Part shown: positions 1-11,523 of the stretch, one piece after another
How positions within the stretch are numbered: the stretch's first letter is position 1
Layout of the letters: each line of letters begins with the position of its first letter
Assembly: GCA_030603495.1 (NCBI GenBank)
Contig: JAUVXR010000042.1
Location: forward strand, 1-17,283
Length of the DNA stretch: 17,283 bases
Direction: 5' to 3'
Source: a bacterium
Lineage (GTDB): Bacteria; Armatimonadota; Zipacnadia; Zipacnadales; Zipacnadaceae
The notes under the pieces: model-generated
Seen by the model: the letters and a program-made list of their open reading frames with translations, nothing else
Told to the model about the DNA's origin: nothing
Databases searched by the model: none
Translations under genes and position numbers: made by a program

Positions 1-60
1 GGATAGAGCACTGGCCTGCGGAGCCAGGGGTCGGGGGTTCGAATCCCCCCGGGCGCGCCA
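1..60 (+). tRNA. tRNA-Arg(GCG), 5' part cut by window edge
   Basis: Partial tRNA: the window opens in the D-arm. The anticodon stem CTGGC/GCCAG encloses the loop CTGCGGA, giving anticodon GCG (reads CGC, Arg). The T-arm GGGGG-TTCGAAT-CCCCC is perfect, followed by acceptor strand CGGGCGC, discriminator G and an encoded CCA. G34 in a bacterial CGN-reading tRNA-Arg is uncommon, because most bacteria use ACG modified to inosine. A repeat array begins directly after the CCA. Confidence 0.93.
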
Positions 61-140
61 TTTGACAGCAGACAACAGCAGATAGGGGCAGGTAACGGCA
101 GATAGAGGCAGACAACAGTAGACAACGACAGAAATACGGC
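61..140 (+). repeat. Short tandem repeat array, 10-bp period
   Basis: Seven to eight consecutive 10-bp units of the form GAYAACRGCA start immediately after the CCA of tRNA-Arg(GCG), with the CAG core in register every 10 bases. The family is the same as the 12-bp arrays downstream, but each unit is two bases shorter and more degenerate. There is no coding signal. From 141 to 185 I see only unassigned leader sequence for the next tRNA. Confidence 0.8.
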
Positions 141-185
141 GAGGTTGCTTATTCTCGACTCTCGCATCTCGCCTCCAAGTCCGGT

Positions 186-263
186 GCCCCCGTAGCTCAG
201 CTTGGATAGAGCAGCAACCTCCTAAGTTGCGGGTCGCCCGTTCGAATCGGGCCGGGGGCGCCA
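186..263 (+). tRNA. tRNA-Arg(CCT)
   Basis: Complete 78-nt tRNA. Acceptor stem GCCCCCG pairs with CGGGGGC, discriminator G, encoded CCA. The anticodon stem GCAAC/GTTGC encloses CTCCTAA, so the anticodon is CCT, reading AGG. The T-arm GCCCG-TTCGAAT-CGGGC is perfect. Confidence 0.97.
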
Positions 264-332
264 TTTGGACGACAGGTAAAACGGCAGGAGTAGCGGCAGG
301 CAACTCGACAGCAGACAACGGCAGATCGCAGG
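264..332 (+). repeat. 12-bp tandem repeat array behind tRNA-Arg(CCT)
   Basis: Begins directly after the tRNA CCA with TTTGGACGACAGG, then units such as ACGACAGGTAAA, ACGGCAGGAGTA and GCGGCAGGCAAC, decaying toward the next tRNA at 339. Same unit and same junction (GCCATTTGGACGACAGG) as the other arrays in the cluster. Confidence 0.85.
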
Positions 333-338
333 CCGCGC

Positions 339-432
339 GGAGAGGTGGCAGAGTCCGGTTGATCGCGCACGACTCGAAATCGTGTAATGGGTTCATCCCC
401 ATTCGTGGGTTCGAATCCCACCCTCTCCGCCA
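339..432 (+). tRNA. tRNA-Ser(CGA)
   Basis: 94-nt class II tRNA with a long variable arm. Acceptor GGAGAGG pairs with CCTCTCC, discriminator G, encoded CCA. The anticodon stem CACGA/TCGTG encloses CTCGAAA, giving anticodon CGA (codon TCG). The T-arm is GTGGG-TTCGAAT-CCCAC. Confidence 0.97.
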
Positions 433-560
433 TTGGACGACAGGTATAACGACAGGTGAAACGACAGGTACAACGGCAGGTACAACAACAGGCAACGACC
501 ACCGCACGGCAGAAACAACGACAACGATAACGGCATCCCAAGGCACTAAGACAGTAGTCG
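433..560 (+). repeat. 12-bp tandem repeat array behind tRNA-Ser(CGA)
   Basis: About five near-perfect 12-bp units (ACGACAGGTATA, ACGACAGGTGAA, ACGACAGGTACA, ACGGCAGGTACA and so on) begin immediately after the CCA, then degenerate into ACAACG-rich sequence up to the next tRNA. The first part is nearly identical to the array at 659, as part of a segmental duplication that includes the 3' end of the tRNA. Confidence 0.9.
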
Positions 561-568
561 GGCAACAT

Positions 569-658
569 GGAGAGGTGACCGAGTGGACGAAGGTGCACGC
601 CTGGAGAGCGTGTTGTCGCGCAAGCGGCACGTGGGTTCGAATCCCACCCTCTCCGCCA
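569..658 (+). tRNA. tRNA-Ser(GGA)
   Basis: 90-nt class II tRNA with the same acceptor and T-arm as the preceding tRNA-Ser. The anticodon stem CACGC/GCGTG encloses CTGGAGA, giving anticodon GGA (codons TCC/TCT). CCA is encoded. Confidence 0.97.
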
Positions 659-790
659 TTGGACGACAGGTATAACGACAGGTGAAACGACAGGTACAAC
701 GGCAGGTATAACGACAGGCAATGACCACGGCACGGCGGGGATAACGGCAGGCGCGGCGGCAGGTACAGCGACAGGCGGAACGAAAGCGGG
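659..790 (+). repeat. 12-bp tandem repeat array behind tRNA-Ser(GGA)
   Basis: Units ACGACAGGTATA, ACGACAGGTGAA, ACGACAGGTACA and ACGGCAGGTATA start right after the CCA. The array continues, more degenerate, up to the ribosome-binding region of the four-helix-bundle gene at 797, so the repeat forms that gene's whole 5' flank. Confidence 0.9.
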
Positions 791-796
791 CAAGGA

Positions 797-1159
797 ATGC
801 CAGCGTTTGAATCTCTGGTCGTATGGCAGAAGGCTCATGAGTTGGCCCTCGAGATATACGGGCTTGCCGAGCACCTGCCCCAGGAAGAGCGCTACGGACT
901 GGTCTCTCAACTAAGGCGCGCGGCAGTATCGGTAGCTGCCAATATTGTGGAGGGTCATGCTCGGGCCACACCGGCTGAATTCGGTCATTTTCTTAGTATA
1001 GCGATAGGCTCTCTGGCAGAGGTTCAATATCTTCTTCTGCTATGCCGTGATATAGGCTATCTATCTGGGGAGCAGGTCCAAAGGGGGGAAGTCTTAGCCG
1101 CGGGGTTAGTTCGAATGATGCACAAGTTCAAGGATACTATTGCTGACCAGGATGGTTGA
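797..1159 (+). CDS. Four helix bundle protein (S23 / 23S-IVS type)
   Basis: A 120-residue, almost entirely helical protein. The N-terminal motif FESLVVWQKAHELALEIY and the central QLRRAAVSVAANIVEGHAR are hallmarks of the four-helix-bundle family first seen encoded in intervening sequences of 23S rRNA genes and often found as free-standing genes. Length matches the family. The family assembles into small oligomers; its cellular function is not established. It starts at ATG 797, preceded by a weak AAGG immediately upstream. The upstream flank is the repeat array and the downstream flank another, inverted array, so the gene sits as an island inside the RNA/repeat cluster. No rRNA is visible here. 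Association with stable RNA genes is suggestive, but any role with these tRNAs is speculation. Confidence 0.9.
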   Translation: MPAFESLVVWQKAHELALEIYGLAEHLPQEERYGLVSQLRRAAVSVAANIVEGHARATPAEFGHFLSIAIGSLAEVQYLLLLCRDIGYLSGEQVQRGEVLAAGLVRMMHKFKDTIADQDG

Positions 1160-1186
1160 GGACGAGTCGCCGCCGCCTAGTCCCAA

Positions 1187-1307
1187 CCTGTCGTTAAGCT
1201 TGTTGTTGAACCTGCCGTTCAACGTGCCGTTAAGCGTGTCGTTCCAACCTGTTGTTGAACTTGCCGTTAAACCTGCTGTTAAGCCTGTCGTTGAACCTGT
1301 CGTCCAA
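1187..1307 (-). repeat. Inverted 12-bp repeat array upstream of SRP RNA
   Basis: Ten consecutive units (nine of 12 bp, one of 13 bp at 1235-1247) of consensus CCTGYCGTTNAA on the plus strand, the reverse complement of the array unit found behind the tRNAs. The array ends at the first bases of the SRP RNA. Read on the minus strand it starts GGCCATTGGACGACAGG, the same junction seen behind the tRNA CCA ends. Together with 1579-1650 it makes inverted arrays flanking the SRP RNA. Confidence 0.92.
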
Positions 1308-1308
1308 T

Positions 1309-1578
1309 GGCCGTGCTAGGCGGGGGACTGGCGGCACCCTGAACCGGCAATCCGCCATAGCCGGGCTGAATTCCCTGCTCGAGGTGTACGGTTGTGGGGT
1401 CTGACCTCAGTAAGCGGTGATGAAGGCCGGGTCCCGCGCAAGCAGACGTTGCTGAACCCCGTCAGATCCGGAAGGAAGCAGCGGTAGGCAATCAGTCTGC
1501 TGTGCCGCGGTCAACCTGGCTGGAGCAGGCTGCCGGGGTAACGCCCGGAACCGTCCATCGACAGCGGGGTGCACGGCC
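1309..1578 (+). ncRNA. ffs: Signal recognition particle RNA, large bacterial type (scRNA)
   Basis: About 270 nt, closed by perfectly complementary ends GGCCGTGC (1309-1316) and GCACGGCC (1571-1578). The core ATCCGGAAGGAAGCAGC (1466-1482), containing the GGAA tetraloop bound by Ffh, is diagnostic of helix 8. The 5' part (GCCGTGCTAGGCGGGG, then CAATCCGC, then CTCGAGGT) matches the Alu domain known from B. subtilis scRNA, so this is the long form rather than the 4.5S form. The RNA scaffolds Ffh for co-translational membrane targeting. A position just upstream of dnaX-ybaB-recR is the conserved arrangement in several phyla. No clear promoter is visible directly upstream, where the inverted repeat array lies. 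The family's RNase III-type maturation would fit the extended terminal stem described in the findings. Confidence 0.96.
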
Positions 1579-1650
1579 ATTTGACGGCAGGTACAACGGC
1601 AGGCGCAGGGGCAGGTACGACGGCAGGAGTAACGACAGGACAACGGCAGA
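1579..1650 (+). repeat. 12-bp tandem repeat array downstream of SRP RNA
   Basis: The GRCAGG core occurs at 1586, 1598, 1610, 1622, 1634 and 1645: five intervals, four of exactly 12 bp and one of 11. The array begins directly at the 3' end of the SRP RNA with ATTTGACGGCAGG. Its first 25 bases are nearly the exact complement of the array on the other side of the SRP RNA. Confidence 0.92.
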
Positions 1651-1968: not shown

Positions 1969-2595
1969 ATGGCGAACACGACTCCAGACATGCCCACCAC
2001 GAAAGACTTGGAGGATGCTCACGAGATATACCTGGAAAATGAGCCGAGGGACCTATTTTACCACGCTGCGAGTGAGCTGGTGCGCCTAAGTCGCACAAAT
2101 GCCACTGATATCAACCTGGCGGAGGCTCTTGCCGTCCTTCTTCTGACTTGGAATCAGAGTTTCTATCGGTTCCATCCTGATCTATATAGCGAGGAACACT
2201 TCAAAGACATCGAGGGGCTGCTTGAAGCACATGAAGCAACAATAGCAAAGTTTGGCAGAGGCTCGATCTTCACATTGCGAGACGAAGATAGGGAGACAGT
2301 CCAAACCATTTTCACGGCATTTAGGAAGATTTTGAGGCCGACAGGTGCTGCTAAGGCGCTTCACCTGTTGGCGCCCACGTTCTTCCCGATATGGGACTTT
2401 GCCATTAGACAGGCCTATGGTAAGCGTGGTGGTGTGCCGTATGCGGACCGTGGCGAGGCTCCCGGTTATTGGGCCTTCATGAAGGCAACAAGGCGACAGT
2501 ATGAGAATGTGGAACCTGAATGGCGCCTCGACGTCGGGATACTCAAGGCGCTGGATGACTACAACTACTGCAAGTACAAGCTGCATGTCATCTGA
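1969..2595 (+). CDS. Hypothetical protein, all-helical, accessory
   Basis: I do not recognise this 208-residue protein. It appears mostly alpha-helical, soluble, with no signal peptide or membrane segment. The most motif-like stretch is AKALHLLAPTFFPIWDFAIR (about residues 126-145), a pattern of Leu/Pro/Phe followed by Trp-Asp that occurs in uncharacterised proteins of mobile gene content. It starts at ATG 1969 with GTGAGG (1959-1964) four bases upstream. Base composition is visibly lower in GC (near 50%) than dnaX or ybaB, suggesting acquisition. Its TGA stop overlaps the ATG of the broken dnaX copy at 2595, so it was placed precisely at a dnaX start codon. Function unknown. Confidence 0.75.
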   Translation: MANTTPDMPTTKDLEDAHEIYLENEPRDLFYHAASELVRLSRTNATDINLAEALAVLLLTWNQSFYRFHPDLYSEEHFKDIEGLLEAHEATIAKFGRGSIFTLRDEDRETVQTIFTAFRKILRPTGAAKALHLLAPTFFPIWDFAIRQAYGKRGGVPYADRGEAPGYWAFMKATRRQYENVEPEWRLDVGILKALDDYNYCKYKLHVI

Positions 2596-2684
2596 TGACC
2601 TACCAACCTTTCGCGTTAAAATACAGCCCGCAGCGGTTTGAGGAGATTGTCGGGCAGCCCCGCTGTGTCCGGAAGAAATGGTGA
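2595..2684 (+). pseudogene. Truncated duplicate of the dnaX 5' end
   Basis: Translation from ATG 2595 gives MTYQPFALKYSPQRFEEIVG, matching the first 22 codons of the intact dnaX at 3250 (MAYQPFALKYRPQRFEEIVG) except for two residues. The nucleotide match from 2598 to about 2659 has only a handful of differences. Similarity stops abruptly after GGGCAGCC and the frame ends at TGA 2682-2684. The ATG lacks the dnaX ribosome-binding leader, because it overlaps the stop of the upstream gene. This is a non-functional remnant of a duplication or insertion at dnaX. Confidence 0.92.
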
Positions 2685-2732: not shown

Positions 2733-3227
2733 ATGGAGAATGACCTCGTGCAAAGGCTTAGCAATGACGATGAGTTTCTGCGCCTCCTGGTCCTGGAACA
2801 GTATAGGCAGGCTGCCGAAGAGTACAGAGCTGAGGACCGCCTCACGTGGCAGACGTTCGCGACAGTTATTGCCATCAATGGAGTATTGGTTGCCCTGTTG
2901 AATCTTGGGAGCGCCTCTGGGTTCTCCGTGCCACTCGTGCTGTCAGGCGTTGTAGGAGTGGTGTCTGTATTGGCAGGAATACGCATCATTGGAAGGAATA
3001 GGCTGTACCAGAAGCAGCGTTTGATAACTGCATCACAGATCGAGGATTTCGCCCCGTTTACCCTCTATCTCAGATCGCCAATTGAGGACTACATGCGCCA
3101 GAGTGGAGTCAAGATCGAATGGGATGAGCGCGGATCTGGCAGGAAAACCATACAGGTCATGCTCTTTGTAATCGGCCTCATGTGGATAACGGTGATGTCA
3201 ATCGCTTTTTACACCGTCCTTAGCTGA
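2733..3227 (+). CDS. Small membrane protein of unknown function
   Basis: 164 residues. A charged helical N-terminus (about 1-42) is followed by two closely spaced hydrophobic segments (roughly 43-60 and 65-84), a cytoplasmic-type charged middle, and a C-terminal membrane span (about 142-162). No signal peptide cleavage site or catalytic motif is seen. The layout of a helical lead plus a tight two-helix membrane hairpin is reminiscent of SLATT-like effector proteins, but I see no diagnostic motif, so this is only a structural analogy. ATG 2733 has a strong GGGGGAG (2718-2724) eight bases upstream. GC is lower than the flanking core genes. It lies between a broken and an intact dnaX 5' end and is probably acquired cargo. 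Confidence 0.75.
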   Translation: MENDLVQRLSNDDEFLRLLVLEQYRQAAEEYRAEDRLTWQTFATVIAINGVLVALLNLGSASGFSVPLVLSGVVGVVSVLAGIRIIGRNRLYQKQRLITASQIEDFAPFTLYLRSPIEDYMRQSGVKIEWDERGSGRKTIQVMLFVIGLMWITVMSIAFYTVLS

Positions 3228-3249: not shown

Positions 3250-4854
3250 ATGGCTTACCAACCTTTCGCGTTAAAATACAGGCCGCAGAGGTTTGAGGAG
3301 ATCGTCGGGCAGCCGCACGTCAGCCAGACGCTGCAGAATGCGGTGGCCCAGGGGCGGATCGTCCACGGCTACCTCTTCGCCGGCCCGCGAGGGACGGGGA
3401 AGACCTCCACTGCGCGCGTGCTGGCCAAGGCGCTCAACTGCGAGAGCGGCCCGACGCCCCAGCCCTGCGGCGAGTGCAGCAACTGCGTGGCGATCCAGGA
3501 GGGACGCTCGCTGGACGTCATCGAGATTGACGCCGCCTCTAACCGCGGCATTGACGAGATCCGCGTGCTGCGCGAGCGTGTGGCCTACGCACCGGCGGAG
3601 TCGCGGTACAAGATATATATCCTCGACGAGGCCCATATGCTCACCCGCGATGCGGCCAACGCCTTCCTGAAGACGCTGGAAGAGCCACCACCGCAGACCT
3701 ACTTCATCCTGGCGACGACCGAGCCGCACCGGATCATCCCCACGATAATGTCGCGCTGCCAGCGGTTCGACTTCCGGGCGATACCGATTGGCCTGATCAG
3801 CGAGCGGCTGCGGGAGATTGCGGCGGATGAAGAGGTGCAGGTTGACGAGGCGGCGCTGACCGCGATTGCGATTGCCGCGGACGGCGCGATGCGCGACGCC
3901 GAGAGTATTCTTGACCAGGTGGTTGCTTATCGGGGGCAGGATGAGCCGGTTGATATCGGCGTGGTACGGACGGTGCTGGGCATCACCGAAGAGTCGCTGC
4001 TCGCCCGCACGGCTGACCTGATTACCCAGGGCGATGTGCCTGGGCTGTTTGGCGTTGTGGACGATCTGGTTAGCGGCGGGAAGGACCTGGTGCAGTTCGT
4101 CGCCGACCTGACTGAGTATTTCCGCAACTTGCTGCGGATGAGTATGCAGGCTCAGGTCGCAGCCTGGGCAAGTGTGGATGAGGCGGAGTTGGAACAACGC
4201 CGCGCGCAGGCCAATACGCTGGGCAGCAAGCGAATTCTCGAGGTCATCCACAGCCTGGCCGAGACCCGAGAGAAGCTCCGGTGGTCGAGCCAGCAGCCGC
4301 TGCTGGTGGAGGTGACGCTGGCGCAACTGGCGCCAGAGAGCAGTACGCCAGGCGTCGCGCCTGTCGAGGCGGGGGATAGGCGAGACGCCCGTCCTACTGA
4401 GCCTGTCCCGTCAGAGGAGCCGGTGCCGGAGCCGCCTCCCCCGGTGGTGGCGGCTGACGGGCCGTTGACCCTGGAAGTAGTGCAGGCCCACTGGGCGACG
4501 CTGCCGAACGAGTTGAAGAGATCGGGCAACATGCCGGTCGCGCCGATTGCTATGGCGGGCAGTCCCGTGGCGCTGAACGATGATACTGTCGTGCTGAGTT
4601 TTGGCGAGGACTACCAGTTTCATTACAACAAGACCCGAGCCGACTACCGGCAGGTCATCGAGGGAGCTCTGGAGAAGCTATTCGGTCAGCCGCTGCGGAT
4701 AGAGTGTCGTTTGGGCGGGGAGGAAGCGGCCGTTCCGGACGACGCGCCTCAGCCGACTCCGCCAACCGGGAAAGCGCCACCGGATGCGGCAGATGAGGCG
4801 GTAGCCCGGACGCTGCAATTATTCGAAGGAAGCACAGAGATAACCGAGGAATAA
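3250..4854 (+). CDS. dnaX: DNA polymerase III subunit gamma/tau
   Basis: 534-residue clamp-loader ATPase of the replisome. Visible motifs: the conserved N-terminus ALKYRPQRFEEIVGQ, Walker A GPRGTGKT (45-52), the four-Cys zinc module (C64, C73, C76, C79), Walker B LDEAH (125-129), sensor region ATTEPH (155-160) and the SRC motif (168-170) with the trans-acting arginine finger. After about residue 365 comes a Pro/Glu-rich linker and a tau-type C-terminal domain. It starts at ATG 3250; GGAGG (3243-3247) is only two bases upstream, a short spacing. No A-rich slippery site for a gamma frameshift was seen. It leads the dnaX-ybaB-recR operon, with ybaB beginning three bases after its stop. A second, truncated copy of its 5' end lies at 2595. 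Confidence 0.98.
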   Translation: MAYQPFALKYRPQRFEEIVGQPHVSQTLQNAVAQGRIVHGYLFAGPRGTGKTSTARVLAKALNCESGPTPQPCGECSNCVAIQEGRSLDVIEIDAASNRGIDEIRVLRERVAYAPAESRYKIYILDEAHMLTRDAANAFLKTLEEPPPQTYFILATTEPHRIIPTIMSRCQRFDFRAIPIGLISERLREIAADEEVQVDEAALTAIAIAADGAMRDAESILDQVVAYRGQDEPVDIGVVRTVLGITEESLLARTADLITQGDVPGLFGVVDDLVSGGKDLVQFVADLTEYFRNLLRMSMQAQVAAWASVDEAELEQRRAQANTLGSKRILEVIHSLAETREKLRWSSQQPLLVEVTLAQLAPESSTPGVAPVEAGDRRDARPTEPVPSEEPVPEPPPPVVAADGPLTLEVVQAHWATLPNELKRSGNMPVAPIAMAGSPVALNDDTVVLSFGEDYQFHYNKTRADYRQVIEGALEKLFGQPLRIECRLGGEEAAVPDDAPQPTPPTGKAPPDAADEAVARTLQLFEGSTEITEE

Positions 4855-5835: not shown

Positions 5836-7593
5836 ATGCCTAGACTGAACGAGAACATAACGAAGTCGCCCATAGTCATTTTCGCAGGCGGGGGAGCTTC
5901 AGACCACCTGGGGTATCCGGTAGGGTCCCGCTTTCTCGCGATGCTGAGAGAGCAATTCGCGGGGTCCACAGCACAGGATGCCTTGTTCCGTGCTCTGGAC
6001 TCTGACCAGCATCCGAACTTCGAGTACATATACGACTACGTGGATCGTCTTTGTGAGCTAGCTAATGTGGTACATGTTCCCGTCCAGCCCGACCTAATAG
6101 AGCAAATCACAGCCCCAGCGACCGACTACTTAGGGCCTCTCCCTGTGATGGTGGACACTTGGGCGAAAGACACAGCGGGGATCAGCAGGATTGCTCAAGA
6201 ACTCCGAAACCGTTTAAGTAGTGTGCTCATTGAGCAATACGGCAACCTAAAGAAACCAACAGTGCTTGAAGGAAGCTGTTGGCCTGCCTTCCTGCGCTTG
6301 CTGCATCCGGGGCCTCGTCACGTACTGCCGGTGTTCACTACGAATTACGACCTTGCTTTCGAAGACCTTGATCGTCAGTTCGCGAAGCGGGAGCTGACGC
6401 CACATGATGCGATCGATCGCAGCTTTCGTGGGCCAAAATGGGTGATTCCCGCCATCTATGATGCGATAAGTGCCGATGGGTCCGACCTGGGGATTGTGAT
6501 ATTCAGGCTGCACGGCTGCGTGGCCTGGCAGGAGCTTGCGCCTGAGTCGCAATCCCCGGACGGTGCTGTCGCAGAAGTCGTCTTCGACGGAAACGGTCGT
6601 CCCGTCGTCGACCCTGAAAAGGCCGCACTGGTTTGGCCGTCGCCCACCAAGCTGCCTTTCACGGAGCCGTTCTGGCAAGCGCACATGTACTTGGTTGACT
6701 GCTTGCAGTCCGCGCGACTTGCCGTGTTTATCGGCTACGGTTTCGCGGACACTGCGATTGCAGGGCTGCTGCAGTACGCCACGCAGAAGAACCATGATCT
6801 ACGGATCGTGCTGATGGACTCTGATAGCAAAGTAGTCGACAGAGCGCGAGAAGCAGGCTTGCCCGTGGAGGAGAAGGATTTCCTCGAATACTCCTTCAAG
6901 AAGCATACGCGAGAGATTGCGGAGGAATTGCTGTCACGGGACCCTGGCGTCGGAGCCGGCGAAGACGCCTTCAAAGCGTTCGAAGGAGAAATCCAACATC
7001 GCGAACACCCTAAGGAGGATGCGGTCCAAGAGCCTGAGGGGTACTCAAACGAACGCCTTCTTCTATTACTGAGGAACGGTGTACATGAGCACATTGTGGC
7101 TGCAGACAACCCAGGCTGGAGTGTGCAGGGCTCTTCCCTGATCGCGAGGCGTGACCAAACAGCCGACGAATTCCACGCGTTCGTCCTACCGTTTAGCACG
7201 GACGGCAACTGGGACGTGTCACTCGAATTCCGATTGGAGCCATCGTCTGGGTGGGGGGCAGTCGCCCTTTGGTGGCGTGGCATGGGACAACCCTTCGTCG
7301 CGATAATGAAGGAGTACGGACGGATACGTGTCAAGCAGATGTCCGGCTACGCGAGGATGCCCGACAGAGACCGGCTTCTCCAGGAAGTCGAGGCGGGGGC
7401 ACACCATTGGCACAGGATTACGATCCACCGGCTCGGCGCCAATATTCGGATGCGAGTTTTTGAAGAAGGGGGTGCGGAGATAATAGACTACCAATGCGCC
7501 TTTGGGCCAGACATCTGGCACGGTGACGTGGCATTGGTAACTACCGAACTCCCACACAATGTGCAGTACCGGAACATCAATTACTCTGAATGA
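5836..7593 (+). CDS. SIR2-like domain protein with C-terminal beta-sandwich, putative defence NADase
   Basis: 585 residues, two parts. Residues about 11-370 form a SIR2-like (SIR2_2-type) Rossmann domain: the nucleotide-binding loop IVIFAGGGASDHLGYP (13-28), the TTNYD motif (168-172), RLHG with candidate catalytic His226, and FIGYGFADTAIAGLL (298-312) followed by the LRIVLMDSD strand. Bacterial proteins of this class commonly cleave NAD+ as abortive-infection effectors. Residues about 440-585 are a strand-rich, Trp-rich region (GWGAVALWWRGMG, then HHWHRITIHRLGANIRMRV) resembling LamG/DUF1080-like jelly-roll domains. I do not know this as a standard partner of SIR2; a sensor role is inference. 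ATG 5836 has TAAGGAG close upstream. GC is lower than recR, which it follows by nine bases, suggesting acquired cargo riding a core operon. Confidence 0.85.
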   Translation: MPRLNENITKSPIVIFAGGGASDHLGYPVGSRFLAMLREQFAGSTAQDALFRALDSDQHPNFEYIYDYVDRLCELANVVHVPVQPDLIEQITAPATDYLGPLPVMVDTWAKDTAGISRIAQELRNRLSSVLIEQYGNLKKPTVLEGSCWPAFLRLLHPGPRHVLPVFTTNYDLAFEDLDRQFAKRELTPHDAIDRSFRGPKWVIPAIYDAISADGSDLGIVIFRLHGCVAWQELAPESQSPDGAVAEVVFDGNGRPVVDPEKAALVWPSPTKLPFTEPFWQAHMYLVDCLQSARLAVFIGYGFADTAIAGLLQYATQKNHDLRIVLMDSDSKVVDRAREAGLPVEEKDFLEYSFKKHTREIAEELLSRDPGVGAGEDAFKAFEGEIQHREHPKEDAVQEPEGYSNERLLLLLRNGVHEHIVAADNPGWSVQGSSLIARRDQTADEFHAFVLPFSTDGNWDVSLEFRLEPSSGWGAVALWWRGMGQPFVAIMKEYGRIRVKQMSGYARMPDRDRLLQEVEAGAHHWHRITIHRLGANIRMRVFEEGGAEIIDYQCAFGPDIWHGDVALVTTELPHNVQYRNINYSE

Positions 7594-10284: not shown

Positions 10285-11523
10285 ATGATGCGAACGTGGT
10301 GGTGGATTATAGCTGTTGTGGCGTGCGTGTCCCTGGGTGCCTGCACCAGCCAAGAGAAGCAGGCACCCGCGTCGGCCATTACGGAGGAGCGACTGGCACG
10401 GGACATCGCAGACTACACTGCCGCTATCAACGCTAATGGGCAAGACGCCGAAGCCTACTACGGTCGCGGGACCGCCTATACTTACAGAGGTGAATACCAC
10501 CGGGCGATTGAGGACTACACCGAGGCCCTCCAAATCAATCCACAATATGCTGAAGCCTATTACGGTCGTGGGATCGCCTATGCTTATGAAGATGAATATG
10601 ATCGGGCCATTGAGGACTACACCAAGGCCCTGCAAATCGACCCCGAATACGGTGAAGCCTACTGCGCTCGCGGAAGAGCCTATCGTCACAAAGGCGAATA
10701 TGACCAGGCGATTCATGACTACACCAAGGCTGTCCAAATCAATCCACAATATGCTGACGCCTATTACAGTCGCGGGAACGCGTACGGTCACGGAGGCCAA
10801 TACGACCGGGCGATTGAAGACTTGAACAAGGCCCTGCAAATCAATCCCCAATATGCTGATGCTTATTGCAGTCGTGGGGGCGTACATACTTCCGAAGGCG
10901 AATACGACCTAGCCATTGAGGACTTCAACAAGGCTCTCCAAATCGACCCGCAATTCGCGACGGCCTACTGCGAGCGGGGCACCGCCTATACTTGCAGAGG
11001 TGACTACGACCGAGCCATTGAGGACTACAGCAAGGCCCTGCAAATCGACCCGCAATTCGCCAGGGCCTACTGCGAGCGCGGGACCGCCTACAGTCACCGA
11101 GGCGAATACGACCGAGCCATTGAGGACTACACCAAGGCTCTAGAAATCAGCCCTGAGCACGGTGAAGCCCTGTACGGCCGCGGGAACGCCTACGGTCACA
11201 AAGGGGAATACGACCGAGCTATTGAGGACTTCAATAGGGCCGTGGAAATCAATCCGCAATTCGCGAGGGTCTACTGCCAGCGCGGCTCCGCCTATACTCA
11301 CAGAGGCGAATACGACCGAGCCATCGAGGACTACACCAAGGCCCTGCAAATCAACGCGCAATTCGCGAGGGCTTACTATGGCCGGGGCCGCACTTATTTC
11401 GAGCAAGAGAAATGGGCGGAGGCGCGCAGCGACTGGGAGAAGGCTGTGGAGTTAGACCCTAACGGGGAGACAGGTCAAAATGCGCGCAACAATCTGGGCA
11501 TTCTGACGGAGGAGGGTCATTAG
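10285..11523 (+). CDS. TPR-repeat lipoprotein
   Basis: 412 residues. A lipoprotein signal peptide (MMRTWWWIIAVVACVSLGAC) has lipobox LGAC with Cys20. After a short linker there are ten tetratricopeptide repeats of 34 residues, nearly identical in pattern (AYYGRGTAYTYRGEYDRAIE followed by a KALQINPQ turn), then a short C-terminal tail. TPR superhelices are protein-binding scaffolds; as a lipoprotein it would act on the outer face of the membrane. Repeats are conserved also at DNA level with a 102-bp period, so copy number could vary by recombination. ATG 10285 has GGGGAG just upstream; a second ATG follows directly. With the esterase it forms the insertion that splits the por operon. Confidence 0.93.
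   Translation: MMRTWWWIIAVVACVSLGACTSQEKQAPASAITEERLARDIADYTAAINANGQDAEAYYGRGTAYTYRGEYHRAIEDYTEALQINPQYAEAYYGRGIAYAYEDEYDRAIEDYTKALQIDPEYGEAYCARGRAYRHKGEYDQAIHDYTKAVQINPQYADAYYSRGNAYGHGGQYDRAIEDLNKALQINPQYADAYCSRGGVHTSEGEYDLAIEDFNKALQIDPQFATAYCERGTAYTCRGDYDRAIEDYSKALQIDPQFARAYCERGTAYSHRGEYDRAIEDYTKALEISPEHGEALYGRGNAYGHKGEYDRAIEDFNRAVEINPQFARVYCQRGSAYTHRGEYDRAIEDYTKALQINAQFARAYYGRGRTYFEQEKWAEARSDWEKAVELDPNGETGQNARNNLGILTEEGH

What the first reader, a model, noticed from the sequence alone, without database searches (positions are those of the whole stretch)
61..1650. Short tandem repeat arrays anchored exactly at the 3' ends of stable RNA genes
Six arrays of a 10-12 bp unit (consensus ACGRCAGGTAYA) lie in this cluster. 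All six begin at an RNA gene terminus with the same junction, GCCATTKGACRRCAG: four behind tRNA CCA ends and two at the ends of the SRP RNA. The unit is not seen elsewhere in the window. Insertion or expansion seems targeted to a GCCA-like RNA end. That could reflect a primer/template mechanism at CCA ends, a site-specific element, or a processing/termination function. The mechanism is inference; the register and junctions are read directly.
Basis: seen in the sequence. Interest (0 to 1): 0.72.

Follow-up and report, generated by a model that had tools for sequence, protein, structure and literature searches.

The report
Repeat-armed insertion elements abutting RNA genes
The short DNA repeats stuck to the ends of transfer-RNA and SRP-RNA genes in this uncultured bacterium look like the arms of a known but unexplained parasite-like insertion (the S23 "intervening sequence" of ribosomal RNA), here settled beside other RNA genes instead of inside ribosomal RNA, and they are swapped between close relatives faster than the genes around them.

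Summary
Six arrays (12-bp, one of about 10-bp) abut tRNA-Arg(gcg), Arg(cct), Ser(cga), Ser(gga) and both ends of the SRP RNA. In the whole genome 18 of 19 array hits lie at RNA-gene ends. The host is a Candidatus Zipacnadia (Armatimonadota) MAG. The same placement (first unit usually 4 nt after CCA, pointing outward) recurs across the family and, with other units (7-12 bp), across the order.

Inverted tandem arms flank IVP genes generally: 52/73 IVP loci from several phyla versus 4/69 same-locus control windows. The arrays are therefore best read as arms of IVS (S23) elements and ORF-less or one-armed derivatives, placed beside tRNA/SRP genes rather than inside 23S rRNA. Between sister genomes (about 92% nt flanks, 96% RecR) arrays and IVP are exchanged (12-bp versus 10-bp units; IVP 53%), while the IVP of the more distant window genome is 90% identical. 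Two-armed cases fold into long stems. No reverse transcriptase was found, so CCA-primed copying is unlikely. How the arms are written, and what S23 does, remain inference.

The parts
1..60 (+). 3' part of tRNA-Arg (anticodon GCG), cut by the contig end
   Evidence: Rfam tRNA hit 1-57, 5' truncated; order of the syntenic cluster in relatives
61..136 (+). array, mostly 10-bp units (ACRRCAGAYA), starting 4 nt after CCA
186..263 (+). tRNA-Arg(cct)
   Evidence: ARAGORN
264..335 (+). 12-bp array directly after CCA (one extra T at the junction)
339..432 (+). tRNA-Ser(cga)
   Evidence: ARAGORN and Rfam
433..540 (+). 12-bp array directly after CCA; degenerates away from the tRNA; unstructured alone (z +1.75)
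569..658 (+). tRNA-Ser(gga)
   Evidence: ARAGORN and Rfam
659..780 (+). array = left arm of the IVP element; first ~80 nt nearly identical to the Ser(cga) array
797..1159 (+). 23S rRNA intervening-sequence protein (S23, four-helix bundle), 120 aa
   Evidence: PF05635 E 5.9e-36; TIGR02436 E 4.2e-34; PDB 2gsc E 4.7e-19, 2rld E 1.7e-5
1184..1310 (-). array = right arm of the IVP element, abutting the SRP 5' end, pointing outward on the minus strand
   Evidence: arm-arm inverted match score 52, z 15-17
1311..1576 (+). large bacterial SRP RNA
   Evidence: RF01854, 177 bits
1577..1654 (+). array after the SRP 3' end; pairs with 1184-1310 to extend the SRP stem
   Evidence: fold of 1180-1655, z -8.2

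Best explanation
The arrays are arms of IVS-type (S23/IVP) insertion elements. A complete element is an S23 gene between two convergent tandem arrays; window 659-1310 is one, filling the slot between tRNA-Ser(gga) and SRP RNA. ORF-less and one-armed derivatives lie at other RNA-gene ends. They sit exactly at mature RNA ends because transcribed flanks outside the mature RNA tolerate insertion; there the RNA is trimmed away. Where two arms exist they pair into a long stem, inferred to be cut by RNase III as in rRNA IVSs, which releases the flanking RNAs. Shown: placement, orientation, IVP identity, the general IVP-arm association, within-locus matching of arms, stem potential, and exchange between relatives. 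Inferred: RNase III excision, and that the S23 protein or recombination with a resident element spreads the arms.
For: (1) IVP between convergent arms in the window, and in the same Ser(gga)-SRP slot in G004, G006, G010 and the order-level G027, G035, G018; G033 and G031 have it beside tRNA-Ser(gga). (2) Same architecture at other RNA slots: G009 between tRNA-Arg(gcg) and Arg(cct), G036 between tRNA-Ile and tRNA-Ala in the rRNA operon. (3) ORF-less convergent arms in the same slot in G012 and G009; a 20-bp remnant holding one unit in G011. (4) Inverted tandem arms at 52/73 IVP loci versus 4/69 same-locus windows, Fisher p 8e-17; inverted 50/74 versus direct 7/74; own arms 24.9 versus other loci 12.3, and in the same genome 27.2 versus 13.5; also outside Armatimonadota. 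(5) SRP flanks pair within each genome (0/5000 permutations). (6) tRNA 3' flanks carry forward arrays 64/220, reversed 2/220, first core usually 4 nt after CCA. (7) Exchange: G004/G006 tRNAs 99-100%, SRP 97%, flanking blocks about 92% nt, RecR 96%, but IVP 53% aa and 10- versus 12-bp arrays, also at tRNA-Arg(tcg) on another contig; the IVP of the window genome is 90% identical to that of G006 while RecR is 74%. (8) Published Coxiella IVS: S23 ORF, 28-bp terminal inverted repeat, tandem GACAGAT heptamers, cut by RNase III in vitro (PMC4990558).
Against: Most tRNA arrays are one-armed and the one folded was unstructured alone (z +1.75), so excision as a hairpin cannot explain them. The element is not inside 23S rRNA. 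Some arrays flank protein genes. Two array-bearing genomes (G005, G013; 81% and 76% complete) show no IVP, and tRNA-Val(cac) kept 12-bp units in G004. No transposase or recombinase for the element was identified. About 30% of IVP loci lack recognisable arms.
Confidence: 0.6

Rival explanations
1. Local slippage plus ectopic gene conversion: the arrays are ordinary spacer minisatellites homogenised by recombination between neighbouring tRNA genes that share 3' ends; the IVP gene is a passenger in one spacer.
For: Ser(cga) and Ser(gga) arrays are near-identical over ~80 nt. Unit type is mostly homogeneous within a cluster and Val(cac) in G004 escapes. Between G004 and G006 the tRNA-distal half of the Arg(gcg) and Arg(cct) spacers is orthologous while the tRNA-proximal half differs, as conversion tracts anchored in a tRNA would give.
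Against: Does not explain arrays at SRP RNA ends or after Val and Ile tRNAs, outward orientation at both ends, or inverted arms around IVP genes in other phyla. IVP 90% between G000 and G006 against 74% RecR needs transfer.
Confidence: 0.22
2. Selected processing stems: the flanks are conserved RNA-processing structures (RNase III stems around SRP RNA and tRNA spacers), maintained by selection, not mobile; repeats are a cheap way to build long stems.
For: SRP 5' and 3' flanks pair within each genome though they differ between genomes (0/5000 permutations). Very stable fold, z -8.2. Convergent spacers in G012 and G009.
Against: Most tRNA arrays have one arm, and the one folded has no structure. 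Relatives without the SRP 3' array (L163, L165, L169, L173, L167) have no extended stem. Wholesale exchange between close relatives.
Confidence: 0.13
3. CCA-primed templated addition (reverse transcription or telomerase-like) at RNA 3' ends.
For: Fixed 4-nt offset from CCA; the tRNA-proximal part of the spacer is the part that changes.
Against: No RVT_1 protein in G000 (93.5% complete) or in six of the eight relatives searched. Same arrays at SRP ends without CCA and at 5' ends.
Confidence: 0.03

Closest known systems
23S rRNA intervening sequences (IVS) with S23/IVP ORF (Coxiella, Leptospira); ORF-less IVSs of Salmonella
   Same: S23 ORF; terminal inverted arms forming a long stem; forms with and without ORF; sporadic, horizontally acquired; Coxiella IVS carries tandem heptamers GACAGAT before the ORF (PMC4990558).
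   Different: Here the element sits outside rRNA, between tRNA-Ser and SRP RNA and beside other tRNAs. Arms are 9-12-bp tandem arrays here (7 bp elsewhere); many one-armed copies.
Avd accessory protein of diversity-generating retroelements
   Same: Same superfamily as IVP (NF033474 E 2e-4, below its cut-off; PMC10053308).
   Different: No reverse transcriptase in this genome; template and variable repeats were not looked for.
Short tandemly repeated repetitive sequences (STRR) of cyanobacteria (from memory)
   Same: Short tandem intergenic repeats dispersed in a genome.
   Different: From memory, not known to be anchored to RNA-gene ends, oriented outward, or paired as arms around an S23 gene.
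REP/BIME elements with RAYT transposases (from memory)
   Same: Small intergenic repeats near gene ends with inverted arrangement.
   Different: Units here are not hairpins themselves; a RAYT was not searched for.

Membership tests
IVS (S23-type intervening sequence) | S23/IVP ORF inside the element | tested here: met
   PF05635 E 5.9e-36, TIGR02436, 2gsc
IVS (S23-type intervening sequence) | Terminal inverted repeats able to form a long stem | tested here: met
   arm match score 52, z 15-17; fold z -6.7 for 659-1310
IVS (S23-type intervening sequence) | Location within a 23S (or 16S) rRNA gene | tested here: not met
   lies between tRNA-Ser(gga) and SRP RNA; a relative has it in the rRNA operon spacer between tRNA-Ile and tRNA-Ala, still outside mature rRNA. 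It is therefore filed as IVS-like, a variant, not as a 23S IVS.
IVS (S23-type intervening sequence) | Excision by RNase III without ligation | not testable with these tools
   stem potential only
IVS (S23-type intervening sequence) | Sporadic distribution and horizontal transfer | tested here: met
   G000/G006 IVP 90% versus RecR 74%; sisters G004/G006 IVP 53% versus RecR 96%
Retroelement / DGR | Reverse transcriptase in the genome | tested here: not met
   no PF00078 match in G000 (genome 93.5% complete)
Transposon-type mobile element | Element-encoded transposase or recombinase | tested here: not met
   only the S23 ORF has a family match between the arms
CRISPR-like array | Unique spacers between identical repeats | tested here: not met
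   head-to-tail units without spacers

The most novel reading that the evidence does not exclude
The S23/IVP protein is the trans-acting factor that writes or renews these arrays, and each S23 lineage specifies its own repeat unit. After a new S23 allele arrives, arrays at unlinked tRNA genes are rewritten from the RNA-proximal end. G004 (10-bp arrays) and G006 (12-bp arrays) differ in this way at the Ser/Arg cluster and at tRNA-Arg(tcg) on another contig. This would give the long-mysterious S23 family a function as a DNA- or RNA-repeat mobility factor.
Probability: 0.2. Interest if true: 0.92.

Novelty: new variant of a known kind. Interest (0 to 1): 0.74.

Why it matters
IVS elements and the S23 protein have been known for decades as odd insertions in rRNA with no function or mobility mechanism. 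The data here extend them to tRNA and SRP genes, show that S23 genes in several phyla lie between matched inverted tandem-repeat arms (an anatomy I did not find described in the papers searched), and supply a natural experiment: two sister genomes in which arms and S23 were exchanged while the genes around them barely changed. That makes the old question of what S23 does directly testable. It also bears on how tRNA and SRP precursors are processed and on how repeats evolve in concert.

Tried and rejected
CRISPR-like array: no spacers. Reverse-transcriptase or CCA-primed copying: no RVT_1 in the genome. Genome-wide concerted change of the unit: rejected in the strong form, because unit type is mostly cluster-level and tRNA-Val(cac) in G004 kept 12-bp units. 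Fixed CCA sequence as target: rejected, SRP ends vary. IVP-array link as a by-product of repeat-rich genomes: rejected by same-locus control windows (4/69) and by orientation (direct 7/74 versus inverted 50/74). G011 as a clean empty site: rejected, one residual unit remains. Literature searches for tandem repeats at tRNA 3' ends found nothing relevant.

Full report
Observation. The window's first 1.65 kb holds a partial tRNA-Arg, tRNA-Arg(cct), tRNA-Ser(cga), tRNA-Ser(gga) and a large SRP RNA. Each has a short tandem array at its 3' end, and the SRP RNA has a second one at its 5' end on the minus strand. The 12-mer is strongly over-represented (26 against 2.9 expected) and absent from the rest of the window above chance.

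Whole genome. With a 20-base two-unit pattern, 18 of 19 hits with up to one mismatch fall at RNA-gene ends: Arg(tcg), Arg(cct), Ser(cga), Ser(gga), Ser(gct), Arg(ccg), Val(tac), Val(cac) and both SRP ends. The exception is C28. tRNA-Ile(gat) and the partial Arg(gcg) carry 10-bp versions. The solitary tRNAs looked at have none. Twenty 20-kb stretches of the genome contained no array by a stricter core scan, which also missed the degenerate C28 array.

Relatives. The genome is a Candidatus Zipacnadia (Armatimonadota) MAG by its nearest named relatives; matched contig lengths tie G006, G004, G011, G009 and G010 to public MAG records (Zipacnadia are described in PMC10290634). Across tRNA loci of 14 family genomes and 7 order-level loci, forward arrays follow 64 of 220 tRNA 3' ends and reversed arrays only 2; the first core usually starts 4 nt after CCA. 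Unit lengths differ by genome and cluster: 12 bp (G000, G006, G005), 10 bp (G004, G013), 11 bp (G001, G012), mixed (G011, G008), 9-10 bp and about 7 bp in the order.

The overlooked gene. [quoted passage not shown] It lies between the tRNA-Ser(gga) array and the inverted SRP-5' array. The same slot holds an IVP in G004, G006 and G010 and in order-level G027, G035 and G018; G033 and G031 have one beside tRNA-Ser(gga). In G009 the IVP with its two arms is instead between tRNA-Arg(gcg) and tRNA-Arg(cct), and the Ser-SRP slot holds convergent arms without an ORF, as in G012; in G011 the slot has shrunk to 20 bp with one unit. In G036 an IVP with arms sits between tRNA-Ile and tRNA-Ala in the rRNA operon, the position where the window's genome has a solo array.

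Generality. At 73 IVP loci in Armatimonadota and other phyla, left and right flanks match as inverted repeats at 52, against 4 of 69 equally spaced windows in the same loci (Fisher p 8e-17). Against 1166 small ORFs of two genomes the rate of such scores is about 3%. The arms are mostly tandem arrays of 7-12 bp and are matched within a locus: own-arm score 24.9 against 12.3 for other loci, and within one genome 27.2 against 13.5; inverted orientation 50/74 against direct 7/74. The published Coxiella IVS has the same parts, including tandem heptamers GACAGAT (PMC4990558). I found no paper describing tandem arms as a general feature of S23 loci, or S23 elements beside tRNA or SRP genes; the library is limited to open papers.

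Structure. The SRP RNA with both flanking arrays folds as one very long stem (-244 kcal/mol, z -8.2); the tRNA-Ser arm, IVP and SRP arm fold likewise (z -6.7). In most array-bearing genomes the SRP flanks pair with each other although they differ between genomes (0 of 5000 permutations reach the observed score). The one single-armed tRNA spacer folded is unstructured (z +1.75). So stem formation applies to two-armed cases only.

Turnover. G004 and G006 are close: tRNAs 99-100%, SRP 97%, blocks of 90.5-93% nt around the cluster, RecR 96%. Yet their cluster arrays are 10-bp and 12-bp respectively and their IVPs are 53% identical. The window's genome, more distant (RecR 74%, DnaX 67%), shares a 90% identical IVP (94% nt) and 12-bp arrays with G006, so cassettes are exchanged between lineages. 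At Arg(gcg) and Arg(cct) the tRNA-distal half of the spacer is orthologous between the sisters and the tRNA-proximal half is different, so change is at the RNA-proximal side. tRNA-Arg(tcg), on another contig, switched unit in the same sense; Val(cac) did not. An array upstream of dnaK in G006 is absent in G004. The IVP tree does not make the slot copies one clade, in line with replacement, though the alignment is short, many forks are unresolved, and one origin is not ruled out.

Mechanism. Best reading: S23-type IVS elements and their derivatives, inserted in transcribed but non-mature flanks of stable RNAs, with arms that can pair and be cut by RNase III. Not shown: the cutting, the insertion chemistry and the role of S23. 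The genome has no RVT_1 match, so RT-based copying is unlikely. The main rival, local slippage plus ectopic gene conversion, probably contributes within clusters (the Ser(cga)/Ser(gga) pair) but does not account for the IVP-arm association in other phyla.

Novelty. A new variant of a known kind. The more daring reading, that S23 specifies and renews the arrays in trans, rests on one sister pair and two contigs and is put at 0.2.

Noticed in passing
window 2595-2661 and 3250-3316: A second copy of the first ~67 bp of dnaX (61/67 identical) lies upstream of dnaX, and several partial copies lie upstream of dnaX in G011 (L161) and one in G004 (L159): looks like an integration hot spot that regenerates the dnaX start, with cargo ORFs 1969-2595 and 2733-3227 (8xMP).
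   Followed up: partly
L116 (G010:C452) 186-1740: In G010 the tRNA-Ser/SRP slot holds an extra ORF that looks GyrI-like (by eye) next to the IVP, and its SRP-side arm is a composite tandem repeat of about 40 bp built from 10-bp units.
   Followed up: no
L089 (G006:C48) 1459-1566 versus L355 (G004): A nine-unit array just upstream of dnaK in G006 is absent in its close relative G004, giving a presence/absence pair with boundaries at a protein gene.
   Followed up: partly
L102 (G013) 1496-1543: An array begins at the stop codon of a FabF-like gene, so that the first unit (TAACGGCAGG) supplies the stop.
   Followed up: no
window 10441-11366: About nine 102-bp tandem repeats encode a TPR-like protein (ORF 10285-11523).
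   Followed up: no
window 5836-7593: A SIR2-like domain protein (585 aa, weak Pfam match) next to recR.
   Followed up: no
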